Shown here: positions 1 to 36,563 of the stretch, in pieces
Numbering within the stretch: the stretch's first letter is position 1
Layout of the letters: each line of letters starts with the position of its first letter
DNA from: Deltaproteobacteria bacterium
GTDB taxonomy: Bacteria; Desulfobacterota; Binatia; UBA9968
Direction of reading: 5' to 3'
Length of the DNA: 36,563 bases
Assembly (NCBI GenBank): GCA_016193465.1
Contig: JACPSE010000187.1
Coordinates: forward strand, 1 to 36,563
Made by a program: the position numbers and the translations under genes
Notes under the pieces: generated by a model
What the model was told of the DNA's origin: nothing
The model's database searches: none
What the model saw: the letters and a program-made list of their open reading frames with translations, nothing else

Positions 1-44
1 GCTAAGAGCCGCATATTGCCCTTGATAACTTCGGAAGCCTCAAA
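1..44. other. Start of the spacer downstream of avd (expected to lead to the DGR template repeat)
   Basis: These 44 bases lie just after the avd stop codon in the direction of transcription (minus strand). In most DGRs the template repeat and reverse transcriptase follow avd, so they are expected past the window edge. I see no adenine-rich template-like sequence in these 44 bases. Confidence 0.4.
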
Positions 45-401
45 CTACCCTGTTCCAGGCAAGGTAACTTTCTTCCACCCACCCAGCAGCCGTCCGATCT
101 CGGCCACCATTTCGGCCACGTGGCGGTATTGCCCAGACGATAACCATCCCCAGCGCGCAGCCAGCCGCACATACAGTCTGACTCGGTCCAGGGACTCGTC
201 GGCAGCGCGAAGTCGAGCCAACCTTTCCCGGCCCTGCCTGATGTTCGCAGCTTCCAGACACTCGCGAAGATCAAAGGCTGCGTCGAGGAGGCGGCGGCTG
301 AAGGTGTGCCGGTGGGCGCGTGGAAAGTTGTTGGTGGCTGGCAGAAGCCACGTCAAAAAATCAAAAGTCCGAGTGAAGATAGGCATTTCGGCGTTACTCA
401 T
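45..401 (-). CDS. avd: DGR accessory variability determinant (Avd-like four-helix bundle protein)
   Basis: This 118-residue protein matches the bAvd / 23S-rRNA-intervening-sequence four-helix-bundle family. Family hallmarks visible are an N-terminal FLTWLLP followed by FPRAHRHTFSRRL, an LRAADESLDRVRLYVRLA helix near residues 65-82, and a C-terminal EIGRLLGGWKK near residues 103-113. In characterised DGRs, Avd forms a ring that binds the reverse transcriptase and template RNA and is needed for mutagenic retrohoming. The ATG at 401 is preceded by a strong AGGAGG Shine-Dalgarno sequence about 7 nt upstream. The gene lies 65 nt downstream of the NACHT-FGE target gene on the same strand, the usual target-avd-TR-RT order. 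The family alone could be a stand-alone four-helix protein; the neighbouring variable region makes a DGR role much more likely. Confidence 0.88.
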   Translation of the reverse strand: MSNAEMPIFTRTFDFLTWLLPATNNFPRAHRHTFSRRLLDAAFDLRECLEAANIRQGRERLARLRAADESLDRVRLYVRLAARWGWLSSGQYRHVAEMVAEIGRLLGGWKKVTLPGTG

Positions 402-430
402 AGCGGCCCCTCCTAAAATGATTCACTAAG

Positions 431-475
431 GAACTTCAGAGATCCAGAGACCAGAGAACTCAGAGTTCAGAGTAA
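431..475. repeat. Short-word repeat tract between target gene and avd
   Basis: The intergenic stretch is built from repeated 'cagaga', 'ccagaga' and 'cagag' words (GATCCAGAGA, CCAGAGAA, CAGAGTTCAGAG). It overlaps the stop of the NACHT-FGE gene and contains the small hairpin listed separately. It resembles other word-repeat tracts at gene junctions in this window, although the word differs. Confidence 0.5.
456..468. other. Small inverted repeat directly after the DGR variable region
   Basis: GAACT-CAG-AGTTC forms a perfect 5-bp stem with a 3-nt loop. It overlaps the target gene's stop codon (467-469). Some DGRs need a short DNA hairpin or cruciform a few bases downstream of the variable region for efficient retrohoming. 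The position fits, but a 5-bp stem in a repetitive tract can also arise by chance. Confidence 0.4.
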
Positions 476-3400
476 GAACGGAGACGCCACTACCCGAAAA
501 CCGATGAGCCTGAGCCAGTAGTACGGGAAGTACCAGTAGCGATACGCACAGCGGGCGAACCAGCGATTGAAGCCAAAGGAGCCGCCCCGCAACACGCGGG
601 CCACTTCGTTCGGAGCATCCAGAGCCTCCCGGCGGCGATCCTCAGGATCATACGGGTACGGAAATTCGGATTTGCCCCACTCTTTTCCCCACAGGCTTCG
701 TGTCCACTCCCAGACGTTTCCGCTCATATCCAGTATACCGTACGGGCTGTGTCCCTCGGGGAAGCAACCGACTGCGCTGGTGGTTCCAATTTTCGCTTCA
801 TCCGTGTTGGCTTTATTCGGATCAAATTCATCACCCCAGGGGTAGATCCGACCTGGATTGGGGTTGTCCATCCCATCCGGGAGTTGTATTCCGCCGCGGG
901 CGGCCTTCTCCCATTGTGCCTCACTCGGCAGCGTGATCCGCCAGCCCTCATTTCTCAGCGGATTAGCCAGTGGCTCGGGAGTCCCAGCGGAATTTCTCAA
1001 CTCATCGGTCAACCACTTGCAGTAGGCGATGGCATCATGCCAACTGACATTGACAACAGGATGATTGGGCAAGCCGCGAAGACTGTCTTCGTCTCGCGGT
1101 TTGTACTTAGTCTTCTCCACGAAGAAGCGGAACTGAGCCACGGTTACTGGATAGCGAGCTATGTAGTAGCGCGGCAGGGTGACTGGATGCTGTTCCTGCT
1201 TGTCCTCAGACGCCTCTTTATCATGCTCCGGATCGCTGCCCATCAGGAAGGGTCCCTCGGGCATCTCGACAAAGCCGAGCAGATCTTCTTTAGGCAGGTG
1301 CCAGGCTTCCGGATCAAAGCGCGGGTCGCCTAGCAGGGCAAGGGCTGCACCTGCATCTGCCCGTTCAGGCGCACTCAGGTCACTTTTTAGCAGTGAAACA
1401 AGGTTAGGAATCAACCGGTCTTCGAGGAAAGCCCGACCTCCACTGGGACTATCAGTGTCGCGCTCTATTGATTCCCGCCCGGCAAGTACTGACATCTTTC
1501 CCGCCCAAAGGAGCGCACGCCGGGCCTGCGTGGAGGTGGAATCGTTGGGGTACAAAGAATAAGCCAAATCCATTAAGGAATTGAGACCACGCCGGTTGTA
1601 AAGCAGTTCCTCTGTGCCAAGCTCAGCAGCGAATTGCCAGTGGTCTCTCTCACCTGCCCGCGCAAAAAACTCGCGACTCAAATCGCGTTGGGAGAGCATG
1701 CAGCACCCAGCCAAATATTCCTGAAACGTGCGATGTGGAAAACTGTAGCCTGTTGGACGGCCCGGCTCTCCACCCTTTCCTACCAGTATACCTGCCCGTT
1801 GATCCACATAATCCAAAAACTCAGCCGCTAAACCAGCACTACCGCAATACCGGGGATCTTCCAGCCAAGTCAGAATCTCGCCCCGCGACAGCAGGCCAGC
1901 CGTTTCTTTCCCTAACCGCCCGATGCGGTGAGATTCATAAGCCAGTTTCTCCATTACACCCCATAGTCGCAGGTTATCGTTTAGAAATGATGTCAGACCC
2001 GTCGAAGGCGCCATGCTAGACTCACCGGTCTTCCGCTTCTGCCATCGGTGTAGGAGCAGCTCGACCGCCAGTTTGTAAAGGCGCACCCTTTCCTTTGGAA
2101 GCCCAATATCCCGCTGGTGGATGCCAGCCATCGCAGTAAGCAACATTGGGTTTTCCGATAGCTCCCGCAGTTCTCCCGACAGGGCAACCGTTGCAAGGTC
2201 GTCAGCTCTCTTCTTCGCTTGGTCTGCGTGTACTCTGCCCAATTGCTTCTGGGCATTGTACCAGGCAGACGTGAACTTACGTACTTTGTCTTCATCAAAA
2301 GGAGCTAAAGTATGGGCTTCAAAGCCAGGTAGTATGGCACTACCAAAGTAGGATCGAATGCGACAGGTGATAATGATGCGCTCGGGCCGATAGATCGTAA
2401 CCGCTCCGATGGTCGCCTGATGAACAAGATTGCGAAGATCAGGCGGCACTTCATCTAAGCCGTCGAGAACAAGCAGGCAACGGCCTTGACCCAGTGCCTC
2501 GCGCAGGCATTCCTCGAAAGCACTGGCACCAAAACGGGCAAGGACTTCCGCTACATAAACATGTAGTAGTTCCGCTAACTTTTTGCGTGCGTCGTCTAGC
2601 GCCATTTCCTCGACTTTAACGCCGACTAGCTTCGGGTAGAGGCCAAGTAATTCCACGAACACTGGCAAAAGTTCCCTAGAGATTCCTGGAATTGGCTTCT
2701 CATTATCTAGCTGAGCGGTGGCCTGCCATGAGATCAATTTCTTGACAAAGGTACTCTTGCCTCCACCAGGGTCACCTAGTAGCACCAGCCGCGAACATTT
2801 ACCCGCGGCCTCCAATGCGGTGAGATGACGCATCTCTTTATCTCGACCAAAAGAGAGAGCATCCCTTCCCCGGACTCCCTTCTCCTTTTCCGTCAATGAC
2901 ACCGGCGTGGTTGTATCAAGATCAGTGTAAACCTGGTCTAGGCTAACGTCCTGTTCTGTGGCCTCATCTATTCCGACGGTGCCTAGAGGTAACACTTGGC
3001 AGGCCCGGCGAAGATGTGCGAGATAGTTCCGACGTGCCCCTTCTGCTTTTCTTTGGTTAACCCCAGGACGGTTAACTATGTCGCCGACGTGGATCGTGCT
3101 CTTACTGATTTTCCCCGCAACCACCGAACGCTTGATATGCGCCCTCGCGCCCCTCCCCTGCGCAATCGTCATGGAACCACCCAAGTGCGCTTTAAACTTG
3201 TTCAAGTTGCCTATTTGCCGCAATTCCTTTTGAAGTGTTTCCTCAAACCAAACGCGGTCTTTTCCCTGCAGGCTCTCGCCTGCTAGATCTACCGCGCCAA
3301 GTTTTTCCAGGACTGTGTCAAGCTGTTCACGAGTTTGTCGATCCTTCGTGGCCTTGGCCAGCTTACTTGCGCCGTCGGCCTCGTCCTTCCACTCTTTAAG

Positions 3401-3622
3401 CTGGTTTGCCCACATACTAGCCGCCGTGCTGCTGGCCAGCAGAGTTCCGAGCGTAGCTAGGGCTGTCTCATTGCCTTGGCGCAACGCTTCTGCTACCGGC
3501 CATAGCGCCGTGGCGGACATAAAGCAGTACGCGGAGTCGACCGTAGCCTTCTGCATGCGGCCCTTCCAGTTTCGGAACCCGTTCTTGGCTTTCCTGATCC
3601 AGGTCCTAACGTTGAAGTCCAT
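467..3622 (-). CDS. NLR-like NACHT ATPase with C-terminal FGE/SUMF1 (C-lectin fold) domain; DGR target protein
   Basis: The 1051-residue protein has several parts. Residues 1-200 are an unrecognised, partly helical region. Around residue 200 the motif YLAHLRRACQVLPL is typical of the segment before bacterial NACHT domains. The NACHT ATPase shows Walker A GDPGGGKST (283-291), Walker B CLLVLDGLDEVP (382-393) and a sensor-like IIITCRIRSY (417-426). A helical region contains FPHRTFQEYLAG. From about residue 785 there is a formylglycine-generating-enzyme-like domain (EGPFLMGSD, YPVTVAQF, LPSEAQWEKAARGG, DMSGNVWEWT). The last 45 residues keep the scaffold RVLRGGSF...ARCAYR...IGFRVVAS, with aromatic residues filling the positions between. 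That is the layout of a DGR variable region on a C-type-lectin fold, so the FGE-like domain is probably a binding surface rather than an enzyme. By analogy with bacterial NACHT proteins, the role is likely ligand sensing coupled to ATPase-driven signalling or defence. The ATG at 3622 has no clear Shine-Dalgarno sequence. Confidence 0.88.
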   Translation of the reverse strand: MDFNVRTWIRKAKNGFRNWKGRMQKATVDSAYCFMSATALWPVAEALRQGNETALATLGTLLASSTAASMWANQLKEWKDEADGASKLAKATKDRQTREQLDTVLEKLGAVDLAGESLQGKDRVWFEETLQKELRQIGNLNKFKAHLGGSMTIAQGRGARAHIKRSVVAGKISKSTIHVGDIVNRPGVNQRKAEGARRNYLAHLRRACQVLPLGTVGIDEATEQDVSLDQVYTDLDTTTPVSLTEKEKGVRGRDALSFGRDKEMRHLTALEAAGKCSRLVLLGDPGGGKSTFVKKLISWQATAQLDNEKPIPGISRELLPVFVELLGLYPKLVGVKVEEMALDDARKKLAELLHVYVAEVLARFGASAFEECLREALGQGRCLLVLDGLDEVPPDLRNLVHQATIGAVTIYRPERIIITCRIRSYFGSAILPGFEAHTLAPFDEDKVRKFTSAWYNAQKQLGRVHADQAKKRADDLATVALSGELRELSENPMLLTAMAGIHQRDIGLPKERVRLYKLAVELLLHRWQKRKTGESSMAPSTGLTSFLNDNLRLWGVMEKLAYESHRIGRLGKETAGLLSRGEILTWLEDPRYCGSAGLAAEFLDYVDQRAGILVGKGGEPGRPTGYSFPHRTFQEYLAGCCMLSQRDLSREFFARAGERDHWQFAAELGTEELLYNRRGLNSLMDLAYSLYPNDSTSTQARRALLWAGKMSVLAGRESIERDTDSPSGGRAFLEDRLIPNLVSLLKSDLSAPERADAGAALALLGDPRFDPEAWHLPKEDLLGFVEMPEGPFLMGSDPEHDKEASEDKQEQHPVTLPRYYIARYPVTVAQFRFFVEKTKYKPRDEDSLRGLPNHPVVNVSWHDAIAYCKWLTDELRNSAGTPEPLANPLRNEGWRITLPSEAQWEKAARGGIQLPDGMDNPNPGRIYPWGDEFDPNKANTDEAKIGTTSAVGCFPEGHSPYGILDMSGNVWEWTRSLWGKEWGKSEFPYPYDPEDRRREALDAPNEVARVLRGGSFGFNRWFARCAYRYWYFPYYWLRLIGFRVVASPFLL
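470..600 (-). other. Putative DGR variable region (VR)
   Basis: The 3' end of the NACHT-FGE gene encodes RVLRGGSF, then 23 codons (506-574), then IGFRVVAS. Eleven of the 23 residues are aromatic. Most variable-looking codons are TAC, TTC, CTC or GGC, which is what adenine mutagenesis of AAC codons in a template repeat would give; TGG codons could derive from AGG or AAG. The interleaved ARCAYR scaffold is unmutated-looking. The proof would be a matching template repeat differing only at adenines, which is outside the window. Confidence 0.75.
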
Positions 3623-3692: not shown

Positions 3693-3719
3693 AGGTTTCG
3701 GCCTGTCACGCCGAAGCCT
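3693..3719. other. Hairpin across the stop of the small downstream gene
   Basis: A 10-base stem with one imperfect pair (AGGTTTCGGC / GCCGAAGCCT) and a 7-nt loop covers the TGA of the 79-residue gene (3706-3708). No T-run follows in the direction of transcription, so it is not a standard intrinsic terminator. It could protect the mRNA 3' end or partly terminate. Confidence 0.35.
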
Positions 3720-3945
3720 TTAGTAAGGCCTTCTCAAGGGGTCGAGGCACTTCAAGGCGAAAGAAGCGGTCCGCCGCATATCCGTAGTCCTCACCGCTCT
3801 CATCAATAACACGTATATACCCGTGTGATTCCGCCTTTACGTCGGGGATGATCCGGTACAGCTTTCCAGCTTCGAGGGAGGCCTCGTACCCCTTATTGTT
3901 AATGCACACGGCAAAATGCGCCTCTTGCTTGGTTTGTTTCTTCAT
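3706..3945 (-). CDS. Conserved small protein of unknown function, second gene of a pair
   Basis: The protein has 79 residues with no signal peptide or membrane segment. The pattern FAVCINNKGYEASLEAGKLY, followed by VIDESGEDYGYAADRFFRLE, resembles a widespread uncharacterised small family in deltaproteobacteria, Nitrospirae and other groups that I recall as predicted beta-rich proteins. The ATG at 3945 is only 2 nt after the stop of the 78-residue gene, so the two are probably co-transcribed and translationally coupled; I see no strong Shine-Dalgarno sequence. The small size and pairing could suggest a toxin-antitoxin pair, but nothing in the sequence establishes that. Confidence 0.7.
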   Translation of the reverse strand: MKKQTKQEAHFAVCINNKGYEASLEAGKLYRIIPDVKAESHGYIRVIDESGEDYGYAADRFFRLEVPRPLEKALLKASA

Positions 3946-3947
3946 AG

Positions 3948-4184
3948 CTAATCTAATAAAGGAAATTTAATCTTCATCTCTCTTCTCCCAATACCATGGG
4001 CTTCATACCAATGCACTTCTGCTGTATGAACGGTGTCGTCTCGGAGGCGTACAGTTGCGACTCCTTTTAACTTTCTCCACCGACCTCGACCATAGCGCTT
4101 GCGCAATCGTACCACCTCCCGAACCGCTCGCCCAACTGCAATCGTCTCAATATCCCTAATCTGGCCGATGATTTCAAAATCCAT
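3948..4184 (-). CDS. Conserved small basic protein of unknown function, first gene of a pair
   Basis: This is a 78-residue basic protein. The central KRYGRGRWRKLKGVATVRL and C-terminal AEVHWYEAHGIGRREMKIK are strongly patterned. I recall near-identical strings in many small hypothetical proteins of environmental bacteria, so this is a real conserved family rather than a chance reading frame. No catalytic motif is evident. The gene is followed 2 nt later by the 79-residue gene, and xerD ends 169 nt upstream. The start at 4184 is uncertain because no good ribosome-binding site precedes it. A toxin-antitoxin or accessory DGR role is possible but unsupported. Confidence 0.7.
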   Translation of the reverse strand: MDFEIIGQIRDIETIAVGRAVREVVRLRKRYGRGRWRKLKGVATVRLRDDTVHTAEVHWYEAHGIGRREMKIKFPLLD

Positions 4185-4353: not shown

Positions 4354-5268
4354 CTATTTCCCTGCGCCTCTCTCCCGTGGATGATATTTGCGATGGACCT
4401 GTTTAAGACGCGAGCTGTCCACGTGAGTGTAGATCTGCGTCGTCGAGATGTCAGCGTGCCCCAGCATGGACTGGACAGAGCGCAGATCGGCGCCGCCTTC
4501 TAAAAGATGAGTGGCGAAGGAGTGGCGCAAGGTATGCGGCGTCACTCTCTTCTCAATCCCAGCGGCCAGGGCGTAGCGTCGGGTCAATTTCCAAAAGCCC
4601 TGGCGAGTAAGGGCCTTGCCGGATCGCGTAAGAAAAAGAAAGGGGCTCGTGCGGCCTCGGGAGAGCCTCGGTCTAATCTCCCGGAGATAACGGAGCAGCA
4701 GTTCTCTCGCCCATTTTCCGAAAGGAACCACGCGTACCTTGGCCCCCTTCCCCCTGACCGTAAGGTAGTCTCCTTCGAGGTTTGCCTGATGCGTTTGCAG
4801 AGAGACCAACTCCGAGACCCGCAGACCGGTAGCGTACAGGAGCTCGATCATCGCCTTGTCGCGCAACCCTAGCGGCGTGCTTGAATCGGGCTGGTTTAAC
4901 AGACCCTGCACCTCATCCCGACTCAAGGTGTGCGGCAGCTTTCTGGAGGCCCGCTGCAGCAAAAAAGCCGGCACCGGGCTCTCCGAGATCGTCTCCTCTT
5001 TCTCCAAAAAACGGTAGAACTGGCGAAGCGCGACCACATTGCGCGCAATGGAGCGGGCGCTCAGGCCTCGACCCCGCAGCCAGGAAAGGTAATGACGCAA
5101 GTGGACGGCCTGGCTCTCTTTCCACGAACGAATGCCGCGACCCTTTAAAAAATTTACCAGTCGGCTGAGGTCCCGACTGTAGGCCTCCAGGGTATTGCGC
5201 GCGAGCCCTTTCTCAACCGTGAGCGTATTGAGAAAAGAGTCAATATAAAGATCAAGCGACTCCTTCAC
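4354..5268 (-). CDS. xerD: Site-specific tyrosine recombinase XerD
   Basis: The 304-residue protein has an N-terminal SAM-like core-binding domain (about 1-90) and a C-terminal tyrosine recombinase domain. All catalytic residues are visible: R150 in ATGLRVSE, K174 in RGKGAK, H245 and R248 in HTLRHS, H271 in GHADIST, and nucleophile Y280 in TTQIYTHV. LPHTLSRDEV and GGADLRSVQSMLGHADISTTQ are typical of XerD rather than phage integrases. With XerC it would resolve chromosome dimers at dif during division. It starts 13 nt after the glnD stop, in a mutS-amidase-glnD-xerD order that I recall from deltaproteobacteria, so it is a housekeeping gene and not evidence of an integrated element. XerC cannot be fully excluded without a tree. 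Confidence 0.9.
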   Translation of the reverse strand: MKESLDLYIDSFLNTLTVEKGLARNTLEAYSRDLSRLVNFLKGRGIRSWKESQAVHLRHYLSWLRGRGLSARSIARNVVALRQFYRFLEKEETISESPVPAFLLQRASRKLPHTLSRDEVQGLLNQPDSSTPLGLRDKAMIELLYATGLRVSELVSLQTHQANLEGDYLTVRGKGAKVRVVPFGKWARELLLRYLREIRPRLSRGRTSPFLFLTRSGKALTRQGFWKLTRRYALAAGIEKRVTPHTLRHSFATHLLEGGADLRSVQSMLGHADISTTQIYTHVDSSRLKQVHRKYHPRERGAGK

Positions 5269-27397: not shown

Positions 27398-30193
27398 TCA
27401 TTGTTTCTTGTCGTCGATCAGATTCGCTTCCTCTAGCGGCTCAAGGACTCCGTTGCGTAGTTTACTTTGGTCAAAGCCTTTCTCAGATTCAGCCTTGACT
27501 GTAACTGAAACGCTCCCCGCGAGATCCGCCAGATTGGCGACGGCGTTCCAGGCTGTAAACAACTGGTTTCTGTCTGCCATAAATGTAATCTCAACGACCT
27601 TCTCGCTGGACTCCAGAGGAAGTTCCTGTGGAGTTGGACCGGGCGGAGTTGGCCCTGAGCCAGGCCCGGGGCCTGGTGGTGTGGGCCCAGGTGGGATAGG
27701 CTCTACTCCAGCAGCCTGGGGGATCGTCTGCGGCATCATTAGGAAGCCGGTTTCGAGATCAATTTCGTCGTCTGACGCCTGCGGAGGGCCAAAACGAATC
27801 TTGTTGACTGTGACTTGATACTTGCCGTCAGGCCCAAGGCTGGGCACTGAACCTGCCGTATAACCGAACGCTCCATTCGCAGCACCTTCGGCTATGCCCT
27901 TCCGGATCGCGTTCGCGGAGATCAGCCGAGTAAAGCCAAGAAATGAGTAGAAGCCGTCTGCAATGTCGCTGGTACGAACTCCAAGCACAGGCGGCTTACC
28001 TTCGCCGAGCTTAAAGAGTTCAACCATTTTCGACGCCTTCACCGAGGAGAAAACCCGTGGCTGAACCTGGGTAATTAGTTCGATAATCCTCCCGTGCTCG
28101 ATACCCAACCCTCCTCCGTCTACCCTAGGAAGCCAAACTTCGGTGTAGAGCTTTAGAAGAGCAGACTCGCCTTCGGCTTGCCGCGTCGCCTCCTGTTCGC
28201 GGAGTTGGCTTTTTTGCTCATCCGTGAGGTTAAGCTGTTTTGCCTTAGCTTTTACCTGCTCGGCGGCCATCAGATAACGGACGGACCGCCGCAAGATCTC
28301 GATTTGATCCGGGGCCGGGATGGCAAGCCCTAAACCGTTTCGGTACTGCCGGGGCTTATCTCCGCATTTCTCCAACAACTCCTTCGCCGCCGCTTCCTGA
28401 TCGGCTTTTGGCTTCCCACTAAATTCCAGTGGCAAATATCCAATCAGAAACGACGGGTCCCGATCGGAAATCTCTCCGGATTTTTCAGGCCAGATGATCG
28501 CTTCACGGTGGCCAGCCAGCCGCTCTTCGAGCATCTCTTTAATCCGATCCCGCACCCGCTTTTCGTCCCTTCCGACCGCATCGGCCTCCTGCTCGATCAG
28601 AAGAGTAACGTTCGGGTCTTTCTTAAAGCAGAAGCGCACTCCATCGAAATGGAGGTAGAGACACTGCTCCTTGAGTTCTTTCAGGCAAGCAAGTGCCGTT
28701 GTGCTATCCAGATCCGGCCCGACACAGATCGAAAGCAGCTCAGGCTCGGTTATCCCCGGCGGAAGCAAGTCTCCCTCTTTGCCCCCTTCCCGCCGGAGGC
28801 CGCCAAAGGAATACATAAGGATGGCTGTGGCAATGCGCATCGCAGGCTTCCGCAGAGCTTCGGCGGAGTTCTCTTTTGCACGGCGTTCATCGATGCGCCG
28901 TGCGCGCGCGTTAGCCCCGACGAAATCGTGCTCAAAGACAGCCTGGTAGTCCGCCTGCTGGCCGACCTCTTTGAAGAAAGCAAGACGGACTTCCGCGTCG
29001 TGAATCGCTACATCGCCAGGGCCGAGCACCGCGCGGCTCTTGCCCTCACGATGAGCGGCTCTGAGGCAAGCAGCAAGAAAGCGTAACGCGCCACGTGTTC
29101 GCTGGAAATCCGGAATCGCCGCCCAACGCTCCCGCATCAGATCTATAAGAGCCGGGTGAAATGGATATGCTGCTCGCACCCGATCCCGTAAGACAATTCC
29201 TTCTTCTTCGGCCTGCTGCCGTTCGGAAGCGCTCTGCGCGTACGCCCGGCGCATTTGAGTCACCACCTCCTGATACGCTCCAGCCGCAGGCATCGCATCC
29301 TCGGCTTCAGGCAGCTTTCCCAACAGCCTCCGCTGGATGACGGCGAGGACCTCATTTCCTTCCACTGGCTCGCGGCGCTGGTCCTTCCGTGCAGCAAGGT
29401 GATCGACCGTTTGAAGAAGATTAATGTACTCTAAGGATTCTCGTTTGCTCGATTGAAGAGAGAACACGAGCGCGGTGTTGTCCGTGTTTCCAACCGCGAC
29501 CGTAAGACGCTGCAGAAAGGTCAGAGTCTCATCACGCAAAGTTGTCTGCTCTACCTTCACGCCTCCCGCGCTAATAAGATAGTTTAGAACTTCATCCAGC
29601 AATATAAGGTTTGGCCCCTCCGCGAGCAGCGCAAGGATCTCGTCTCCCCCAGGGGCAACCCTCGCCTCATCCTGCGCACGTAAAACTTCATAGCCCTTCT
29701 TTCCCCCAAGCGACCAGGCAACCCATCCCCACATTGTCCGAGCACGAAATGTCTCGCCTGGGATTGTTTTTCCCTTTGTCGCGTCAAAAAATTGTCCGTC
29801 AAAAACCGCCGTTCTAACTTCTTTCTTTGGTCGTGGCAGCCCCTTGCCTTCGGGAATAACGTCGAGAGCCTTGCGGTTCTTCGCGGCGTGTAGGAGAGAC
29901 GCCAGCGTGTGCGACTTGCCACCGCCGAAAGGAGTCATAAGCTTTAGCACCCGGCTGCCCTCCCCACCTTCGAGACGAGACAGAGCATCATGAAGCAGCG
30001 AGCGAAGCCCGGAGGTGATGTACGATGCGCGGAAGAAATGCTCCGGATCACGATATACCGCAGGCACCTTGGGGTTGCCATCGGCCAACGGACCAAGGTC
30101 GAGCGCGAAGATGTCTTCAGAGAAGTTTTCCGACAACACATCGGGGTGAAGGGATACCACCTCCACCCACGGCCTGATCGCTGTCTTGCTCAT
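27398..30193 (-). CDS. DUF499-family P-loop ATPase of a defence-type gene cluster
   Basis: From ATG 30193 the protein has 931 residues. Shine-Dalgarno AAGGAG lies about 6 nt upstream. RPWVEVVSLHPDVL opens the DUF499 domain. Walker A is TPFGGGKSHT (87-96), and a Walker B candidate is LILLDEVLNYL near 195-205. Residues about 850-880 are a Pro-Gly linker (PPGPTPPGPGPGSGPTPPGP), then a small C-terminal domain of about 65 residues. DUF499 proteins recur beside DUF1156 methyltransferases and helicases in antiphage islands; the ATPase presumably acts on DNA in that complex, but its mechanism is not settled. The open frame extends 14 codons further upstream into a duplicated sequence that is not part of the gene. 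Confidence 0.88.
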   Translation of the reverse strand: MSKTAIRPWVEVVSLHPDVLSENFSEDIFALDLGPLADGNPKVPAVYRDPEHFFRASYITSGLRSLLHDALSRLEGGEGSRVLKLMTPFGGGKSHTLASLLHAAKNRKALDVIPEGKGLPRPKKEVRTAVFDGQFFDATKGKTIPGETFRARTMWGWVAWSLGGKKGYEVLRAQDEARVAPGGDEILALLAEGPNLILLDEVLNYLISAGGVKVEQTTLRDETLTFLQRLTVAVGNTDNTALVFSLQSSKRESLEYINLLQTVDHLAARKDQRREPVEGNEVLAVIQRRLLGKLPEAEDAMPAAGAYQEVVTQMRRAYAQSASERQQAEEEGIVLRDRVRAAYPFHPALIDLMRERWAAIPDFQRTRGALRFLAACLRAAHREGKSRAVLGPGDVAIHDAEVRLAFFKEVGQQADYQAVFEHDFVGANARARRIDERRAKENSAEALRKPAMRIATAILMYSFGGLRREGGKEGDLLPPGITEPELLSICVGPDLDSTTALACLKELKEQCLYLHFDGVRFCFKKDPNVTLLIEQEADAVGRDEKRVRDRIKEMLEERLAGHREAIIWPEKSGEISDRDPSFLIGYLPLEFSGKPKADQEAAAKELLEKCGDKPRQYRNGLGLAIPAPDQIEILRRSVRYLMAAEQVKAKAKQLNLTDEQKSQLREQEATRQAEGESALLKLYTEVWLPRVDGGGLGIEHGRIIELITQVQPRVFSSVKASKMVELFKLGEGKPPVLGVRTSDIADGFYSFLGFTRLISANAIRKGIAEGAANGAFGYTAGSVPSLGPDGKYQVTVNKIRFGPPQASDDEIDLETGFLMMPQTIPQAAGVEPIPPGPTPPGPGPGSGPTPPGPTPQELPLESSEKVVEITFMADRNQLFTAWNAVANLADLAGSVSVTVKAESEKGFDQSKLRNGVLEPLEEANLIDDKKQ

Positions 30194-30269
30194 TTCCAGC
30201 TCCTTCGGACAACACATCGGGATGAAGGGATACAACCTCCACCCACGGTCTGATCGCTGCCTTACTCAT
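30117..30269 (-). CDS. Short leader reading frame made by duplication of the DUF499 gene start
   Basis: ATG 30269 has its own AAGGAG 6 nt upstream and encodes MSKAAIRPWVEVVSLHPDVL, nearly identical to the first 22 residues of the DUF499 protein, then shifts frame and stops at TGA 30117-30119 (50 codons). It overlaps the first 77 nt of the DUF499 gene in another frame. It may be translated and may couple or dampen DUF499 translation, or it may be a recombination scar. Confidence 0.45.
   Translation of the reverse strand: MSKAAIRPWVEVVSLHPDVLSEGAGNEQDSDQAVGGGGIPSPRCVVGKLL
30132..30269. repeat. 76-bp tandem near-duplication at the start of the DUF499 gene
   Basis: Bases 30132-30193 and 30208-30269 match with 5 differences over 62 aligned bases (period 76). 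The repeated part covers start codon plus the first 20 codons; a Shine-Dalgarno sequence precedes each copy. All but one difference (Thr/Ala at codon 4) are synonymous, so both copies look as if they were once under coding selection. Confidence 0.85.
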
Positions 30270-30281
30270 CTGCGACTCCTT

Positions 30282-33266
30282 CTACCTAAAGAGCGGTAAC
30301 ATCCGATCTTCGATCACACTGCGCCAGTTGGCAGTTAGCTTTGCAAGCGCCGCCATTTCATCCGACGGCGACACATCCGCAAGCTCGCCTCCCTTTAAAG
30401 CTGGGCCAGCTAAGGCTTGCGCCACAAGCCGCATCTGCTCCCGGTCCGGTTGGGCGTCCTGTAAGAACTTAGCCAATTGCGCAGGACGATTCTCCATTAG
30501 CCATAGTGTTCGATGGAGAGCGTCGACCAGTGAAGCGGAACGACCATTGTCATCCGGCAGCCCAAGTTTGTCGTCATCACCCCGCTCGGTGTAATCCAGA
30601 AGGCGATACTTCCCCTTTTTCTTTTCGACCAGAGCCCGCCCTCCTACCGAGAGACCTCCCGACCCATCCAATTCCACGTGCGCTCCGTTGGCAAAGATTA
30701 TCGCTTCACCTGCGTCCAATTCAGCTCCTCGATAAGTGTAACGCCAAAGAATGTAAAACCTCGTCGCCGCATCCAGGCCGGCAAGGCTATACCCACCTTT
30801 ACTCCCAACTTCCTTCGACAAACGAGCCAGGATAGTTTCGAGCACGACAGTTTCAACCTCGCCAAGAAACCGTCCTGCCGGGACCTCTTCGCCATTAGCG
30901 TATTCGACCCGTCCAAATCGGGTAAATGGACGCAACCCCGCCCCCACAGAAGCAATGACCAAGTCTGCACCGGCAACGCCCATGTCCCAAAGAGTCTCTA
31001 CTCGCTCACGCACAGTCTCCACTAACTCCGCACGCACATTCTCCTCGTAGTTCGCTGTACCAGTTCCAGCCCGTTTACGAGCAACCAAGAAGATACTAGA
31101 CGCCAACGCTGCCGTTTCCTGTGCCATCAATCGCCCCGATTTCTCTGTATCTAAAGGCCACGCCTCTACAACAGTCATACCCGACTGTCGGAGAGCATCT
31201 ACAAGAGTTGCCCATCCAAGAGTTGTCTTGTGAGCGTATACGACTACAAACTCTCCAGAGTTTTTTAGGGAACGGCTCGCTCTGTGGAAGGCTTCAAGCA
31301 TCATGGTCTCATAGAAGTTCCGTGCCTTCTGCTTGTTTCCACTGTGGAGTGCCGGATCAGCAACAGCTTCCGCCTTTTTTGGGCTTAAGACGCTTGAAAA
31401 ATGTTCAGGAAAAAGGTCTCCGATGCTTCGTTTGAGCCAAACGTAGAAGAAGTCTGCAAGAACTGCGTACCCGATGTTGTCGTAGTAAGGCGGATCAGTA
31501 ATGACTGCGTCAAAGTGGTCAACTGGCCACTCGGTGGAAGCCGCAGAACCTCGCATCACTTGAGCAGCAATGGAAGAATCTGCATCTCTTAATCCTGCCG
31601 GGAGGTCTTCGATGCCCGATATCCAGCTTGCGCCTTCTGGATTGAACACGTTTGTTTCGGCAAAATCCCAAACCATTGGAAGAGCCTGCCTCCCAAAGGT
31701 GTGAACGACCCCTCTACCTCCAGTATAGTTAAAGAGACAAAGGCTCGAGTTGAAATCGGCTAGACGGTCCAGCAACGCCGCAAGAAAAACACTGAGCGCC
31801 TTTGCTCGATCTGCCTCAATTCCCAGGTTGACTGCCTCTTTATGAGCACGACGAATGGATATACAGAACGTGAGTAGCGATAGAAGCTGCCTTGCGGTAA
31901 ACAAGGATGACCACGTGTGAAATCCATACGGCTGGCAGTTTCCACCACCACCAACCACATGGTCTGGAGTAGGCTCATCAGGAACAGTGATACCTGAGAC
32001 CTGAGATAGTTCAGAAAGCCTCTTGGCGATTAACACCTCGTCCGGAATATGCGCAAGAACATCGTCCGCAGAGATATAAATCTTACCCTGATCCCCTCTG
32101 CGACTAGCCGCAACCGCCATTAACTGTCGCCCCAACCGTTGCCCGATACCTTCGGCTTTGACGTAATCGTTGTCGTTTACAGCACCGCAGAACGGGCATG
32201 CAGCATTTCCCGCGCTGGAAAAGCCTGCCGGATCGAAGCCCAGTTCCCTCTCAGAACGCGCCTCGACGACTTCGAACCGGACACGTTTCTGGTTCTTTAG
32301 CTTAACTAGCTTCATTGCAGCGTATCGGCCTTTCTTCTTGCAAAGCCAGGTTTGTCGCACCAGTGGCACAATTGCACCGCAGGCCGGATTTTTACAGCGC
32401 ACAGTCCGCGTCCACAGGTAGGCCACCGGCATTAGGTACCCTTGAGGCGCGTCGTCGGAATCCTGTTTCTTGAGCCAATCGGTTTGATCCTCTTTTCGCT
32501 TTCCCTTGAACTCAGGGTCAGGGATAACCGGATATAAGTCTCCGATCTCTGCTTTAGCTTTCTTTAGAACCCAGTTACCCCAGTAGCGCACCTCATTTGC
32601 TAGCCCGTCCCAAGTTGTTTCACCCTTGCCGTTCTTTGGGCCTGTCATGCCTCTAGCGTTTGGATCTGGCTTTCCATACTTCTGCGGATAGACGAGCGTG
32701 CAAAGCTCAATGATGTATGCGACGGGGTTAAGGTCCATCGCGTACGCTTCGCAGCCAAGCCGGAGGGCCTCAAGCGGAATAGCACCGCCCCCTGCAAACA
32801 TATCGAGCACTCGTGGTCGGGGAGCACGACCTGCTGTGATGTCCTCCACGGTCACGCGCTCGCCATCAAACTTGAACTCGTCAGCCCAGGCAGGTCGGCG
32901 CCCTCCCACTTTCCCTTCTGCGAGTTCTGTGGTGAGCCGCTCGGCGTGAGCTTCTAGAATATGGCGTTGGGCCTCGGCGATTGTGCTGCGATCTCCTGGA
33001 TACTTACAGAGACGATCCACAAACTTGGCCGCATTCGCTCTCGTCAAGCTGGCACGTTTTTCCTCCGGGCCGTTTTTCGGAGCAAAGCGGGAGGCTGGCA
33101 CCAGCGCGCCATAAACCGCAGCTCGGCAAGCGACAAGTGGCCGCCGTGCCCAGAGATGCAACGTGGAAATGTGGCCTTTGCGAACCGACTTCTCCCTCGA
33201 TGCTTCTTTGCTGATGGCTTCGATGGGAAGGTAGTCTTCGATGAGGCGTTTGTCGTTTCCGGTCAT
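30282..33266 (-). CDS. DUF1156 DNA methyltransferase (adenine-type motifs)
   Basis: This 994-residue protein begins with a DUF1156 domain (DYLPIEAISKEASREKSVRK, HISTLHLWARRPLVACRAA). Motif I for S-adenosylmethionine is VLDMFAGGGAIPLEALRLG (about 153-171). Cysteines that may bind zinc are C291, C296 and C309, and C357/C360 in CPFC. Catalytic motif IV is DPPYYD (591-596), the DPPY type used for N6-adenine or N4-cytosine methylation. Residues 750-994 form a large C-terminal region without a recognised domain. By association it would mark host DNA so that the linked helicase/nuclease unit attacks unmodified phage DNA. It is followed 12 nt later by the DUF499 leader. Its 106-nt upstream gap contains a copied fragment of the preceding gene. 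Confidence 0.9.
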   Translation of the reverse strand: MTGNDKRLIEDYLPIEAISKEASREKSVRKGHISTLHLWARRPLVACRAAVYGALVPASRFAPKNGPEEKRASLTRANAAKFVDRLCKYPGDRSTIAEAQRHILEAHAERLTTELAEGKVGGRRPAWADEFKFDGERVTVEDITAGRAPRPRVLDMFAGGGAIPLEALRLGCEAYAMDLNPVAYIIELCTLVYPQKYGKPDPNARGMTGPKNGKGETTWDGLANEVRYWGNWVLKKAKAEIGDLYPVIPDPEFKGKRKEDQTDWLKKQDSDDAPQGYLMPVAYLWTRTVRCKNPACGAIVPLVRQTWLCKKKGRYAAMKLVKLKNQKRVRFEVVEARSERELGFDPAGFSSAGNAACPFCGAVNDNDYVKAEGIGQRLGRQLMAVAASRRGDQGKIYISADDVLAHIPDEVLIAKRLSELSQVSGITVPDEPTPDHVVGGGGNCQPYGFHTWSSLFTARQLLSLLTFCISIRRAHKEAVNLGIEADRAKALSVFLAALLDRLADFNSSLCLFNYTGGRGVVHTFGRQALPMVWDFAETNVFNPEGASWISGIEDLPAGLRDADSSIAAQVMRGSAASTEWPVDHFDAVITDPPYYDNIGYAVLADFFYVWLKRSIGDLFPEHFSSVLSPKKAEAVADPALHSGNKQKARNFYETMMLEAFHRASRSLKNSGEFVVVYAHKTTLGWATLVDALRQSGMTVVEAWPLDTEKSGRLMAQETAALASSIFLVARKRAGTGTANYEENVRAELVETVRERVETLWDMGVAGADLVIASVGAGLRPFTRFGRVEYANGEEVPAGRFLGEVETVVLETILARLSKEVGSKGGYSLAGLDAATRFYILWRYTYRGAELDAGEAIIFANGAHVELDGSGGLSVGGRALVEKKKGKYRLLDYTERGDDDKLGLPDDNGRSASLVDALHRTLWLMENRPAQLAKFLQDAQPDREQMRLVAQALAGPALKGGELADVSPSDEMAALAKLTANWRSVIEDRMLPLFR

Positions 33267-33330
33267 ATTATTGCTTCTTGTCGCCTTTGCCGGGTTTCCG
33301 GACCCGCCCCTTTACGGCCCGTTTCCTTGG

Positions 33331-33404
33331 ATTGCCCCTTTTGCCCCTTTGGTGCCCCTTCGCGAACTCTATTCATTGCCCCTTTTGCCCCTTTGGTGCC
33401 CCTT
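33331..33404. repeat. 30-bp direct repeat at the end of the DUF4062 gene
   Basis: Two identical 30-bp copies (33331-33360 and 33375-33404) are separated by 14 bp. Each is made of GCCCCTTT(T/G)-like words. The second copy encodes the last residues (KGAPKGQKGQ) of the DUF4062 protein and touches its stop; the first lies just downstream. Only two copies and a very short spacer exclude a CRISPR. Confidence 0.85.
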
Positions 33405-34842
33405 TGGCTAACCGGTACTGAACACCTTTGCCAGTGGTTCCGGTCTTTTCGAGAAGCCCCGCAGCAACTAATGCAGCCAAGTCAAGAGACGCCGTTCTCT
33501 TGGCGACCGAGAACTTCTGTTGGTACTGCGAGTTTGTAATTTGGAAATCAACCTTCAGGTAGTCGATAAGCTTCCGCTGCCGCTCGTTCAAAGGGAACCT
33601 AGACAACGCCTCGATGGTCAGCCAGTCGCGCCAGAGGGTGACCACAAACTGGCCTGCCCGCTGTTCGAAATCGGGCTCCGGGAGGTTCGCCTCGCGGCAC
33701 CGCTCTATCATGTCGAGTGTTCCGGTTCCTGCTTTTTCGATGTAGCGAGCCAGGAAGAGGGGTTCGCTTATGAGCGGGTTCCGCGGGATCGAAGCGTGCT
33801 CCTGCCGCAACTGCTCGGGCGTGAGATTCGGCGGCAGTTCGCCTGGGTTCCACACCTCCAGCCGGTCGATGAAGAGCATCACCTGTACGCTCGCATTGCT
33901 GGTGTAGTCGCGATGGGCAACAGCGTTGACGATGGCCTCTGTGACGGCCTCTTCAGGAAGGTCGTATCGCACCGGCGCTTGGGGGCCGCGCTCGCGCGTG
34001 CCCACGGAACGAGCCAGCTTCGACATCACAAAGTCCACGGCTTGGTCCACCAGGTCGAACGCCGTGCCTTTGTGGATCTGATAAGAAGGGATCGGTTTGC
34101 GGACTTCCGTGCCGTGGAAGTGCATGCACTTGACTTCCGAAGTGGGCAAAAACCGCTGCGGCTCCCGGCCGAAAAGGAGGACGGCGGCGTGGGTTGGACG
34201 CCGACGCCCGTGATCGTGGCCCAGGAGGTTTAGGTGCGCCAGCGCCTTCTCCGCAGGGGTATTCGCGGCGAGCGCGTACCGTCGCTCCCGCCGCGCCGCA
34301 TCCAGGAACCATTTCAGCTTCTCAGCCGAGATATCCGCCAACGTTGCGCGAGGACAGGACGCGGCGTCGAAGGGGGCAGTTTGGAGCGCGCCCTTGCGCT
34401 CAAGCTCGTCGACTAGACTGGCGTACAAGGCGGCTGTGAGCTCTGGAATGTCCACGAAACGCCTGCGGATAAGTTGTGACCCAGCCTTTCGCATGAGAGT
34501 GCGCATTTTGGGATGCCTGATCTTATCTTCCCTCCCTTTAACGAAGATCAGGCGGACCTTGCCCTTTGAGGTTGCCCGGTCAAACTCACGCTCGGTAGGT
34601 GAAAGGCCATTACTGTCCTCGCTTCCGTACTGATTTCCAAATAGGCCAAGGTAGATAGCGCATTTGTCCACTTCCTCCAAATATACCGCGTCGGCACGCT
34701 TGTCCGACGCCGGCAGCTCTTCGAACAAGAACACTTCGAAGAAACGACGCAGGAGCGGGTCTCCGTGAACATACTCCTTGATAGCGCGGCGCTCCTCCGC
34801 GAGCTCCTTCTGAACGCTGCTGATGAAGATGGTGGCTTTCAT
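33373..34842 (-). CDS. DUF4062 / GHKL-ATPase (HATPase_c_4) / winged-helix regulator-like protein
   Basis: Three parts are visible in 489 residues. An N-terminal DUF4062 domain has TIFISSVQKELAEERRAI, the acidic CAIYLGLFGNQYG and LSPTEREFDRA (residues 4-95). A central GHKL-type ATP-binding fold of the HATPase_c_4 group has EEAVTEAIVNAVAHRDY (297-313) and LEVWNPGELPPNL (328-340). A C-terminal winged helix lies at about 415-480 (QQKFSVAKRTASLDLAALVAAGLLEK). DUF4062 has been proposed to be TIR-like and also begins STAND-type immune ATPases; HATPase_c_4/wHTH proteins are usually treated as regulators. ATG 34842 overlaps the helicase stop as ATGA, so it belongs to the same operon. It could be an infection sensor or a repressor of the unit. 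Confidence 0.85.
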   Translation of the reverse strand: MKATIFISSVQKELAEERRAIKEYVHGDPLLRRFFEVFLFEELPASDKRADAVYLEEVDKCAIYLGLFGNQYGSEDSNGLSPTEREFDRATSKGKVRLIFVKGREDKIRHPKMRTLMRKAGSQLIRRRFVDIPELTAALYASLVDELERKGALQTAPFDAASCPRATLADISAEKLKWFLDAARRERRYALAANTPAEKALAHLNLLGHDHGRRRPTHAAVLLFGREPQRFLPTSEVKCMHFHGTEVRKPIPSYQIHKGTAFDLVDQAVDFVMSKLARSVGTRERGPQAPVRYDLPEEAVTEAIVNAVAHRDYTSNASVQVMLFIDRLEVWNPGELPPNLTPEQLRQEHASIPRNPLISEPLFLARYIEKAGTGTLDMIERCREANLPEPDFEQRAGQFVVTLWRDWLTIEALSRFPLNERQRKLIDYLKVDFQITNSQYQQKFSVAKRTASLDLAALVAAGLLEKTGTTGKGVQYRLAKGAPKGQKGQ

Positions 34843-36563
34843 GCCGATCCCCCATGCGCCTTGGCGGCATTGAGAATCGCATCAGCGGGAATGTCGAAGT
34901 ATCTCACGACTTCCCGCTTGGCGTGATCGAGATGTTTGACTGGGTTGCAAATTCTCAGCGGCTCGGGTTCGGGGTTGTCCAGGGGATTCCAGACAACGTA
35001 GAGCCAATAACTGTCACCCAACTGCGCTGCTTTGTACCACTCGTTCGTCGTCAAACGGATGGTATGTCCGCGTGTCCGGCCTTTGACTTCGATGCGGCGG
35101 ATGCCGATCACCGGGTCGCGATAGCCGGTTTGCGAGTCAGCAGGACCAAGGCTCCGAACGTCAAAACCAATTTTCAAGTGACCCACTCTCTCACACTCCC
35201 ATCCCCGTCCGGTCTCGTATGCCACAACCAAATCTTCAGCAGCCTTCTCGGAACGCTGCCGCAACAGAGGATCGATGTCCTCGGGCGCCATAGCCGCCGA
35301 TTTGGCCTCGACTCCCTTCGGGAAGACCAGGGCCGTCCCTAGATACCGCACTGGTCCATGGCGCACAACGGTCAGCCGGTCCAGTCCCGCCAGACGCTCG
35401 CGGTGGGTACGCTCAAGATCCGCAAGATCGTTTTCCGCGCGTTGGCGCGCCAGACCAACTTCAGGAGAAGAACTTTCACGAGCGCGCAATGCCATCACAC
35501 GGTCTTGTGCCGACCGGCGCCTCGTCTCAAAGGATTGTTCAAGATAGTTGCGGCTGACCTCGACAAAGTGGCGGCGTTCTTCCATGCAACGAGCGCGTAA
35601 ATCCATCTGCCAAGTGCTCTTCACAAAGTCGGCGGCGGCACTTGAATCGACGGGATCAATAGAAGCAGGCGGTTTGGGATGTGCCGGAAGGTCGATAAGA
35701 CAGTCGGCTGGCACAACTGCGAATCGCTCCGATGATCCAACCGGCGCGGTTAGATCTTCACGCACGATCACCAGCTCGCCCTGCAATGTTTGTGGTTGTC
35801 CCTTTGTGTTTTGCCCTCGGATTCCGATCTCGAAAAAGTGTAGACGATAAGCTGACTCTGTTGTTTCGTCTACATAGGCCGCGACCCCACCGACGGCATC
35901 CGCCAAAAGTTCGTTTATCCGCTCATCCACTGCCGAATAAAGTGGATGGCCGGGTCCGATAAGCACAGCATCCAAGTGCTGGTCCATGTTCACGTGCTCT
36001 TTGTGAAAGGTAAGCTTTCGATAAGCCGGCTCCGCTTTCCCGAGCCGCCGCACTGCTTGCAGGCGATCTGACCGAAGATCGGCCAACACGTGCTCAATCC
36101 GCCACAGGCCGTCGGCGCGAGGCTCGATCCGTAACCCGATCTCTTTGCTCGCCTTAAGGAACTGTTCTTCGACGTAGCGGGGCATGAGACGCCGCTCTTC
36201 CGCCTCGGCATTAGCCTGCTGGAATCCGGAGAAGTCGACATTGGCGCGCGCGAGAGCGATCCCGGTCGCCTGCTCGTACTGCTGGAGCTTCTTAGGATCG
36301 ATGCGCTCGATCTGGTCCAGGTAGTCATCGAGCCGCCTAGGATCGAAGGCCGCCTCCCGAAGCATTTCCGGAAGATTCACGTTGTTCAGCGAAAGCACCT
36401 CTCCGATCACATCAAAGACACGATCATCGAGCACGGCCCGCATCTGCTCGAGTTTCTGGAGAAGGCGCTGGAGGATACAGCCTTCGACTATGGGTTGTCC
36501 TTCTTCGGAGTCCGTCGCGACGAAATTGAAAGCATGAACATCGCGCTTTTGACCGATCCGGTG
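34839..36563 (-). CDS. SNF2-family helicase with C-terminal DUF3883 domain (5' end beyond window)
   Basis: The frame stays open to the right edge, so only the last 574 residues are seen. The first visible residues, HRIGQKRDVHAFNFVATD, are helicase motif VI of the SNF2/DEAD superfamily 2, so the ATPase core lies outside. A long helical middle follows, with coiled-coil-like RRRSAQDRVMALR and RQRAENDLADLERTHRERL. The C-terminus has YRDPVIGIRRIEVKGRT followed by LTTNEWYKAAQLGDSYWLYVVWN, the DUF3883 (NO VEIN C-terminal) pattern, thought to be PD-(D/E)XK-nuclease-like; the E-V-K here would be the active-site pair. It ends 4 nt into the DUF4062 gene. It is probably the translocase/effector of the defence unit. 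The ATG at 36441-36443 is internal, not a start. Confidence 0.88.
   Translation of the reverse strand, partial: HRIGQKRDVHAFNFVATDSEEGQPIVEGCILQRLLQKLEQMRAVLDDRVFDVIGEVLSLNNVNLPEMLREAAFDPRRLDDYLDQIERIDPKKLQQYEQATGIALARANVDFSGFQQANAEAEERRLMPRYVEEQFLKASKEIGLRIEPRADGLWRIEHVLADLRSDRLQAVRRLGKAEPAYRKLTFHKEHVNMDQHLDAVLIGPGHPLYSAVDERINELLADAVGGVAAYVDETTESAYRLHFFEIGIRGQNTKGQPQTLQGELVIVREDLTAPVGSSERFAVVPADCLIDLPAHPKPPASIDPVDSSAAADFVKSTWQMDLRARCMEERRHFVEVSRNYLEQSFETRRRSAQDRVMALRARESSSPEVGLARQRAENDLADLERTHRERLAGLDRLTVVRHGPVRYLGTALVFPKGVEAKSAAMAPEDIDPLLRQRSEKAAEDLVVAYETGRGWECERVGHLKIGFDVRSLGPADSQTGYRDPVIGIRRIEVKGRTRGHTIRLTTNEWYKAAQLGDSYWLYVVWNPLDNPEPEPLRICNPVKHLDHAKREVVRYFDIPADAILNAAKAHGGSA

What the first reader, a model, noticed from the sequence alone, without database searches (positions are those of the whole stretch)
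1..601. Diversity-generating retroelement cut by the left window edge
An avd gene lies directly downstream of a gene with a C-terminal variable-region signature (GGSF...ARCAYR...IGFRVVAS). This is the standard target-avd arrangement. The template repeat and reverse transcriptase are expected immediately beyond position 1 on the minus strand.
Basis: partly seen in the sequence, partly recalled or inferred. Interest (0 to 1): 0.85.

Follow-up and report, generated by a model that had tools for sequence, protein, structure and literature searches.

The report
Complete hypermutation cassette targeting immune-like protein
The window edge cuts a complete genetic device that rewrites one end of an immune-sensor-like protein with random changes; the device is of a known kind, but the DNA just behind its target carries a short phased repeat, shared with dozens of relatives, that I could not find described.

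Summary
The window (G000:C161) overlaps contig C193 by 119 identical bases, and C193 supplies the missing half of a diversity-generating retroelement (DGR). The template repeat starts 28 bp beyond window position 1 and the DGR-type reverse transcriptase starts 370 bp beyond it. In the 126-bp template/variable pair, 21 of 23 mismatches fall on template adenines (P about 2e-14). The target is a 1051-aa STAND-like NTPase with a C-type-lectin/FGE sensor domain, followed by avd. Two same-genus genomes show the empty site (xerD directly beside the M50 protease gene); the nearest RTs are mostly Chloroflexota, so the cassette was probably acquired horizontally. This is a new member of a known kind (FGE-bearing STAND targets of cellular DGRs).

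One thing may be new. The variable repeat is followed by a phased array of five CTCTG units (7-9 nt apart, window 437-472). The same kind of array follows most of 52 variable repeats from related DGRs (CTCTG 121 times, against 0 behind their templates). Its core variant tracks the RT lineage (CTCTG versus TTCTG: one change on the tree). Some phage and cyanobacterial DGRs have variants. I propose it is a cis-acting recipient mark. Function is untested, and one key survey (Wu 2018) could not be read.

The parts
467..3622 (-). DGR target (variable protein), 1051 aa: uncharacterised N-terminus, STAND/NACHT-like NTPase (Walker A GDPGGGKST at residue 283, Walker B LLVLDGLDE at 383), C-terminal FGE/C-type-lectin domain
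   Evidence: of 31 aligned targets (this one and relatives) all have the FGE domain and 24 NACHT
488..1273 (-). FGE-sulfatase / C-type-lectin fold domain (residues 784-1045) that carries the variable region
   Evidence: Pfam PF03781 171 bits; AlphaFold2 mean pLDDT 88, pTM 0.90; Foldseek hits to FGE, ToxD, CalU17 and the Treponema DGR variable protein 2y3c
474..599 (-). Variable repeat (VR), codons 1008-1050 of the target
   Evidence: 82% identical to C193:147-272; 21 of 23 mismatches at template A
482..499 (-). Invariant 3' block TTTCGGGTAGTGGCGTCT shared by VR and TR (IMH-like position)
   Evidence: direct sequence comparison
437..472 (-). Phased array of five CTCTG units (437-441, 445-449, 452-456, 461-465, 468-472; spacings 7, 9, 7, 8), starting next to the VR 3' end and spanning the target's stop codon; proposed recipient-site element
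   Evidence: present behind most of 52 related VRs, absent behind TRs
45..401 (-). avd, accessory variability determinant, 118 aa
   Evidence: NF033474 and PF22296 above curated cut-offs; the only bAvd match over the cut-off in the genome
1..119 (.). Exact 119-bp overlap with G000:C193:1-119 (reverse complement); beyond it on C193 lie TR (147-272) and RT (489-1538)
3706..4184 (-). Two small ORFs (79 and 78 aa) between xerD and the target; part of the inserted segment, no recognisable relatives in the loci held
4354..5268 (-). xerD (housekeeping recombinase): boundary of the insertion; in two same-genus genomes it abuts the M50 protease gene
   Evidence: TIGR02225 365 bits; synteny

Best explanation
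It is a complete, apparently intact diversity-generating retroelement in the order target - avd - TR - RT, split by a contig break. Expected mechanism: the RT-Avd complex copies the transcribed TR into cDNA while misreading adenines, and the cDNA replaces the VR, re-randomising about 20 codons of the C-type-lectin sensor of a STAND-like NTPase. By analogy with other STAND sensors, the protein would recognise a changing ligand (phage or competitor) and signal through its NTPase. Shown: all parts, adenine-specific divergence, intact frames, a patchy distribution and an empty site in relatives. Inferred: that it is active now, that the target is a defence sensor, and that the CTCTG array behind the VR marks the recipient.
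For: TR/VR with 21 of 23 mismatches at A. DGR RT motif and YVDD in an open 349-aa frame. avd over curated cut-offs. FGE/CLec fold. Same order VR-avd-TR-RT in 10 other loci, plus 5 with an additional VR. Adenine-specific TR/VR pairs in most relatives of this RT. Target architecture matches the FGE-bearing STAND targets of cellular DGRs in PMC10907252. Contig join supported by overlap and gene order.
Against: No read-level variation was available, so activity is not shown. NACHT and AAA_16 scores of the target itself are just under Pfam cut-offs (23.7 vs 26.7; 26.9 vs 32.6). No GC-rich stem-loop of the BPP-1 kind lies within 130 nt of this VR. Two mismatches are not at A.
Confidence: 0.93

Rival explanations
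1. The DGR is a decaying relic: components are present but no longer active.
For: No BPP-1-like stem-loop near the VR; a neighbouring SprT-like gene has an in-frame stop; no close RT in same-genus genomes.
Against: RT, avd and target frames are all open and the motifs intact; only 2 of 23 mismatches are off-adenine, so VR and TR have not drifted apart at other bases.
Confidence: 0.12
2. The CTCTG array behind the VR is not a DGR element but one copy of a dispersed intergenic repeat or a microsatellite.
For: Many genomes carry dispersed CTCTGTGNN-type repeats matching the same triplet pattern, and some arrays are plain 7-nt tandem repeats away from any target gene.
Against: In the window's own genome the only other hit is one TC-rich repeat. 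Spacers are near random (identity 0.31-0.42) while the two bases before CTG are kept (0.81, 0.67). The array is absent behind TRs. The core variant segregates with the RT lineage in one change, against 6.3 expected. An array hit on another contig proved to be a remote VR matching its TR with 1 non-A mismatch.
Confidence: 0.2
3. The array is a by-product of retrohoming (slippage or repeated 3' junction repair), not a signal.
For: It starts within a few bases of the VR end, where cDNA integration occurs.
Against: Slippage would duplicate spacers with the core; spacers are divergent and the core conserved. Different lineages hold different but internally uniform cores.
Confidence: 0.1
4. The array is a transcription or translation signal between target and next gene.
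For: It overlaps the stop codon and lies upstream of avd in this locus; GC-rich hairpins follow it in 34 of 53 related loci, which could be terminators.
Against: It follows VRs whether the next gene is avd, RT or something unrelated, including second targets downstream of the RT and on other contigs.
Confidence: 0.12

Closest known systems
Cellular DGRs with STAND-NTPase targets (clade 5D in Dore et al. 2024, PMC10907252; e.g. Thiohalocapsa PB-PSB1 DGR 3 and DGR 6)
   Same: DGR RT, TR/VR, and a STAND/NACHT NTPase fused to a C-terminal FGE/CLec variable domain; sporadic distribution across phyla
   Different: One target here, not two; nearest named RTs are Chloroflexota (74% or less identity); whether this RT falls in clade 5D was not tested against their tree
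Bordetella phage BPP-1 DGR
   Same: Order target - avd - TR - RT, adenine mutagenesis, IMH-like 3' block
   Different: RT only 34% identical; phage tail target; a GAAA-loop hairpin 4 bp after the VR, whereas here a CTCTG array occupies that place and no hairpin was found
VMAP/ternary conflict systems with DGR-diversified FGS domains (Kaur et al. 2020, PMC7159879)
   Same: FGE-type CLec domain diversified by a DGR in a putative conflict system
   Different: Here the NTPase is fused to the sensor; in those systems the vWA component is fused to the FGS domain and works with a MoxR ATPase, and no such genes were recognised beside this locus

Membership tests
Diversity-generating retroelement | Reverse transcriptase with (I/V/L)GxxxSQ motif and YxDD | tested here: met
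   PIGNLTSQ and YVDD in the 349-aa frame at C193:489-1538; motif definition from PMC3521204
Diversity-generating retroelement | TR/VR pair differing almost only at TR adenines | tested here: met
   21 of 23 mismatches at A, P about 2e-14
Diversity-generating retroelement | Accessory protein Avd (most but not all DGRs) | tested here: met
   NF033474 89.3 bits vs cut-off 80
Diversity-generating retroelement | VR in the C-type-lectin fold at the target's C-terminus | tested here: met
   PF03781, AlphaFold2 and Foldseek incl. 2y3c; VR at codons 1008-1050 of 1051
Diversity-generating retroelement | IMH/IMH* at the 3' ends of VR and TR | tested here: met
   18 identical bases followed by small differences; function inferred from position
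Diversity-generating retroelement | GC-rich hairpin/cruciform with GRNA tetraloop downstream of VR (phage-type DGRs) | tested here: not met
   No stem of 7 bp or more within 130 nt of this VR; PMC3521204 calls it required in a subset of DGRs only, so not decisive
Diversity-generating retroelement | Observed mutagenic homing | not testable with these tools
   No reads or second strain with the same locus
STAND/NACHT NTPase sensor | NACHT/STAND NTPase domain | tested here: inconclusive
   Walker A and B present but NACHT 23.7 bits vs cut-off 26.7; 24 of 31 aligned targets match NACHT at E<=0.001
STAND/NACHT NTPase sensor | Anti-phage activity | not testable with these tools
   Only analogy with characterised STAND proteins (PMC10907252)
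Formylglycine-generating enzyme (catalytic) | Catalytic cysteine pair | tested here: inconclusive
   Only one Cys in the aligned C-terminal segment (ARCAYR); the stretch aligned to FGE's CHESYC has none; suggests a non-catalytic sensor, not tested further

The most novel reading that the evidence does not exclude
DGR recipient sites carry a second, previously undescribed cis-element: a phased array (7-9 nt period, mostly 4-7 units) of a lineage-specific pentamer (CTCTG, TTCTG, ATCTG, CACTG; CTTT-type in cyanobacteria) placed between the end of the VR and, where present, the downstream hairpin. It is absent behind the TR and its sequence tracks the RT lineage, so it would be the mark by which the DGR ribonucleoprotein, or a factor it recruits, tells recipient from template.
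Probability: 0.45. Interest if true: 0.75.

Novelty: new member of a known kind. Interest (0 to 1): 0.5.

Why it matters
The DGR itself adds one more immune-sensor-like target to a known class, with unusually clean evidence of horizontal insertion. The array matters more if it holds up. How a DGR sends cDNA to VR and never back to TR is understood only in part, and mainly for phage-type elements with a hairpin next to the VR. A lineage-specific array would give a testable recognition code, a way to find remote targets (one was found here) and a handle for retargeting DGRs in laboratory use.

Tried and rejected
Hairpin in the 50 nt right after the VR: no enrichment across 53 VRs; GC-rich hairpins appear further down in 34 of 53, but not here. 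Second VR or second TR in this genome: none. Other bAvd matches in the genome are below the cut-off. Viral origin: no viral contig encodes a relative of this RT under the patterns used; the phage RTs listed are about 38% identical or less. Array as stop codons in all frames: many units lack TGA. Array pairing with a complementary CAGAG near the TR: only 2 CAGAG in all TR flanks.

Full report
OBSERVATION. The ORF at window 45-401(-) is a true avd (NF033474 89.3 bits, cut-off 80; bAvd 68.5, cut-off 40). It lies 65 bp downstream of a 1051-aa ORF, 467-3622(-), whose last 270 residues are an FGE/C-type-lectin domain. The quoted C-terminal signature is there.

THE MISSING HALF. The window is contig C161 of a 4.5-Mb genome. 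Its first 119 bases equal the first 119 of contig C193 in reverse complement. C193 holds a template repeat at 147-272 and a 349-aa reverse transcriptase at 489-1538, 28 and 370 bp past window position 1. The RT carries PIGNLTSQ and YVDD, is the only RVT_1 match in the genome, and its best PDB match is 8ub7. Against VR 474-599(-) the TR differs at 23 of 126 positions, 21 of them template A (31 A in TR), hypergeometric P 2e-14. TR reads DNNRRNARCANRNRNNPNNRNRN and VR reads GFNRWFARCAYRYWYFPYYWLRL: mostly AAY-to-aromatic changes. No other VR was found in the genome.

THE JOIN AND THE INSERTION. In same-genus genomes G003 and G002, mutS-amiC-glnD-xerD is followed directly by M50-trpS-scpA-scpB-rluB, with less than 100 bp between the xerD and M50 matches. 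In the window genome the first block is on C161 and the second on C193, with a DGR segment of about 6 kb between them. This supports the join independently of the overlap and shows an empty site. Some family members hold other cargo between xerD and M50. None of the 24 other same-genus or same-family genomes searched has a close RT match (26-34% identity at best, probably other RT types). The named relatives are mostly Chloroflexota MAGs at about 60-74% identity, with scattered Pseudomonadota and others (a few partial matches are higher). In the tree this RT sits inside a mainly Chloroflexota group, next to L032 and L049 at modest support (85/59). Horizontal acquisition is the natural reading.

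TARGET. It has Walker A GDPGGGKST and Walker B LLVLDGLDE, with NACHT and AAA_16 just under the Pfam cut-offs. Of 31 aligned targets (this one and relatives), all have FGE and 24 NACHT; a few have TIR, EAD7/8, kinase or KAP. AlphaFold2 of the C-terminal domain (pLDDT 88, pTM 0.90) matches FGE-fold proteins and the Treponema DGR variable protein 2y3c. This is the architecture described for cellular DGRs that diversify putative antigen sensors (PMC10907252). That it senses phage is analogy, not shown.

RELATED LOCI. An ungapped search for adenine-specific repeats found TR/VR pairs in most loci fetched by this RT. Order VR-avd-TR-RT, as here, was seen in 10 other loci, plus 5 with an additional VR; other lineages use VR-RT-avd-TR or VR-TR-(avd reversed)-RT.

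THE ARRAY. Right after the VR, spanning the target's stop, come five CTCTG units at spacings 7, 9, 7, 8 (437-472). In the 60 nt behind 52 non-redundant VRs, CTCTG occurs 121 times against 0 behind the TRs, 42-fold over the same loci; neighbouring CTG cores are spaced 7 (91 cases), 8 (50) or 9 (26). A motif-blind test (longest chain of any 4-mer at 6-10 nt, dinucleotide shuffles) gives p<0.01 for 21 of 52 VR flanks and 1 of 47 TR flanks. Within 36 arrays the two bases before CTG agree (0.81, 0.67) while spacers do not (0.31-0.42); the CTG itself was used for alignment. TTCTG and CTCTG arrays, both within Chloroflexota, separate with one change on the RT tree; 300 label shuffles gave 6.3 on average and never fewer than 4. 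Phages BalMu-1 and Lagaffe have three ATCTG units between VR and hairpin, and cyanobacterial plasmid DGRs have CTTT/CCCT chains, of mixed significance. BPP-1 and ANMV-1 show no significant array. Two FGE paralogues of the window genome that could be read lack CTCTG behind the stop.

ARRAY CAVEATS. The pattern was noticed by eye and then counted. Genome-wide, CTCTG triplets also occur in a dispersed CTCTGTGNN repeat family and in microsatellites. From those hits I picked non-TG arrays by hand. Of 12 loci not already known, 7 lay directly behind an FGE-type C-terminus and 5 did not. One of the 7 (L200) matches the TR of its genome's DGR with 1 non-A and 18 A mismatches, so the array can find a remote target. 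About ten of the 52 related VRs show no clear array. The papers read do not mention it, but Wu et al. 2018 was not available and supplements were not read.

MECHANISM OF THE ARRAY (inferred). BPP-1 needs a hairpin 4 bp after the VR for efficient homing, and its distance from the VR matters (PMC3240598). In these DGRs the place next to the VR is taken by the array, and a GC-rich hairpin, when present, lies behind it (34 of 53, expected 1.6); this locus has none. The best guess is a binding array for the RT-Avd ribonucleoprotein or a recruited host factor that marks the recipient. Lineage-specific cores within one host phylum favour a DGR-encoded reader.

VERDICT. The DGR is a new member of a known kind; the array is the part worth following.

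Noticed in passing
window 27398-36443(-): Candidate Hma-type defence system at the right edge: HmaC-like ATPase (27398-30235), HmaB-like methylase (30282-33266), a protein with weak pAgo/Aga-model hits (33373-34842), and an HmaA-like protein (34839-36443) matching only the C-terminal half of the model, so the helicase part may be split or cut by the window edge.
   Followed up: partly
window 474-599 (VR): Adenine substitutions are strongly biased to T (17 of 21) against 42% in related VRs (single-test P 3e-4; highest of about 53), giving an aromatic-rich variable face; selection or RT bias not separated.
   Followed up: partly
L005 (G000:C193) 1554-2048(+): SprT-like (HExxH) gene next to the M50 protease gene has one in-frame stop here; an intact relative exists in another genome of the family (L111).
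   Followed up: no
window 3706-4184(-): Two small ORFs of 79 and 78 aa inside the inserted segment with no relatives in the loci held; the second has a weak CarD-like hit.
   Followed up: no
many genomes, e.g. G021, G015, G061: A dispersed intergenic CTCTGTGNN-type repeat resembles the DGR array core but has different spacers; relation unknown.
   Followed up: no
L083 and L084: Identical RT in MAGs assigned to two different phyla, most likely cross-binning.
   Followed up: no
L188, L205 (G037): CTCTG arrays behind two FGE-type genes in a same-class genome; not matched to a TR, possible further DGR targets.
   Followed up: partly
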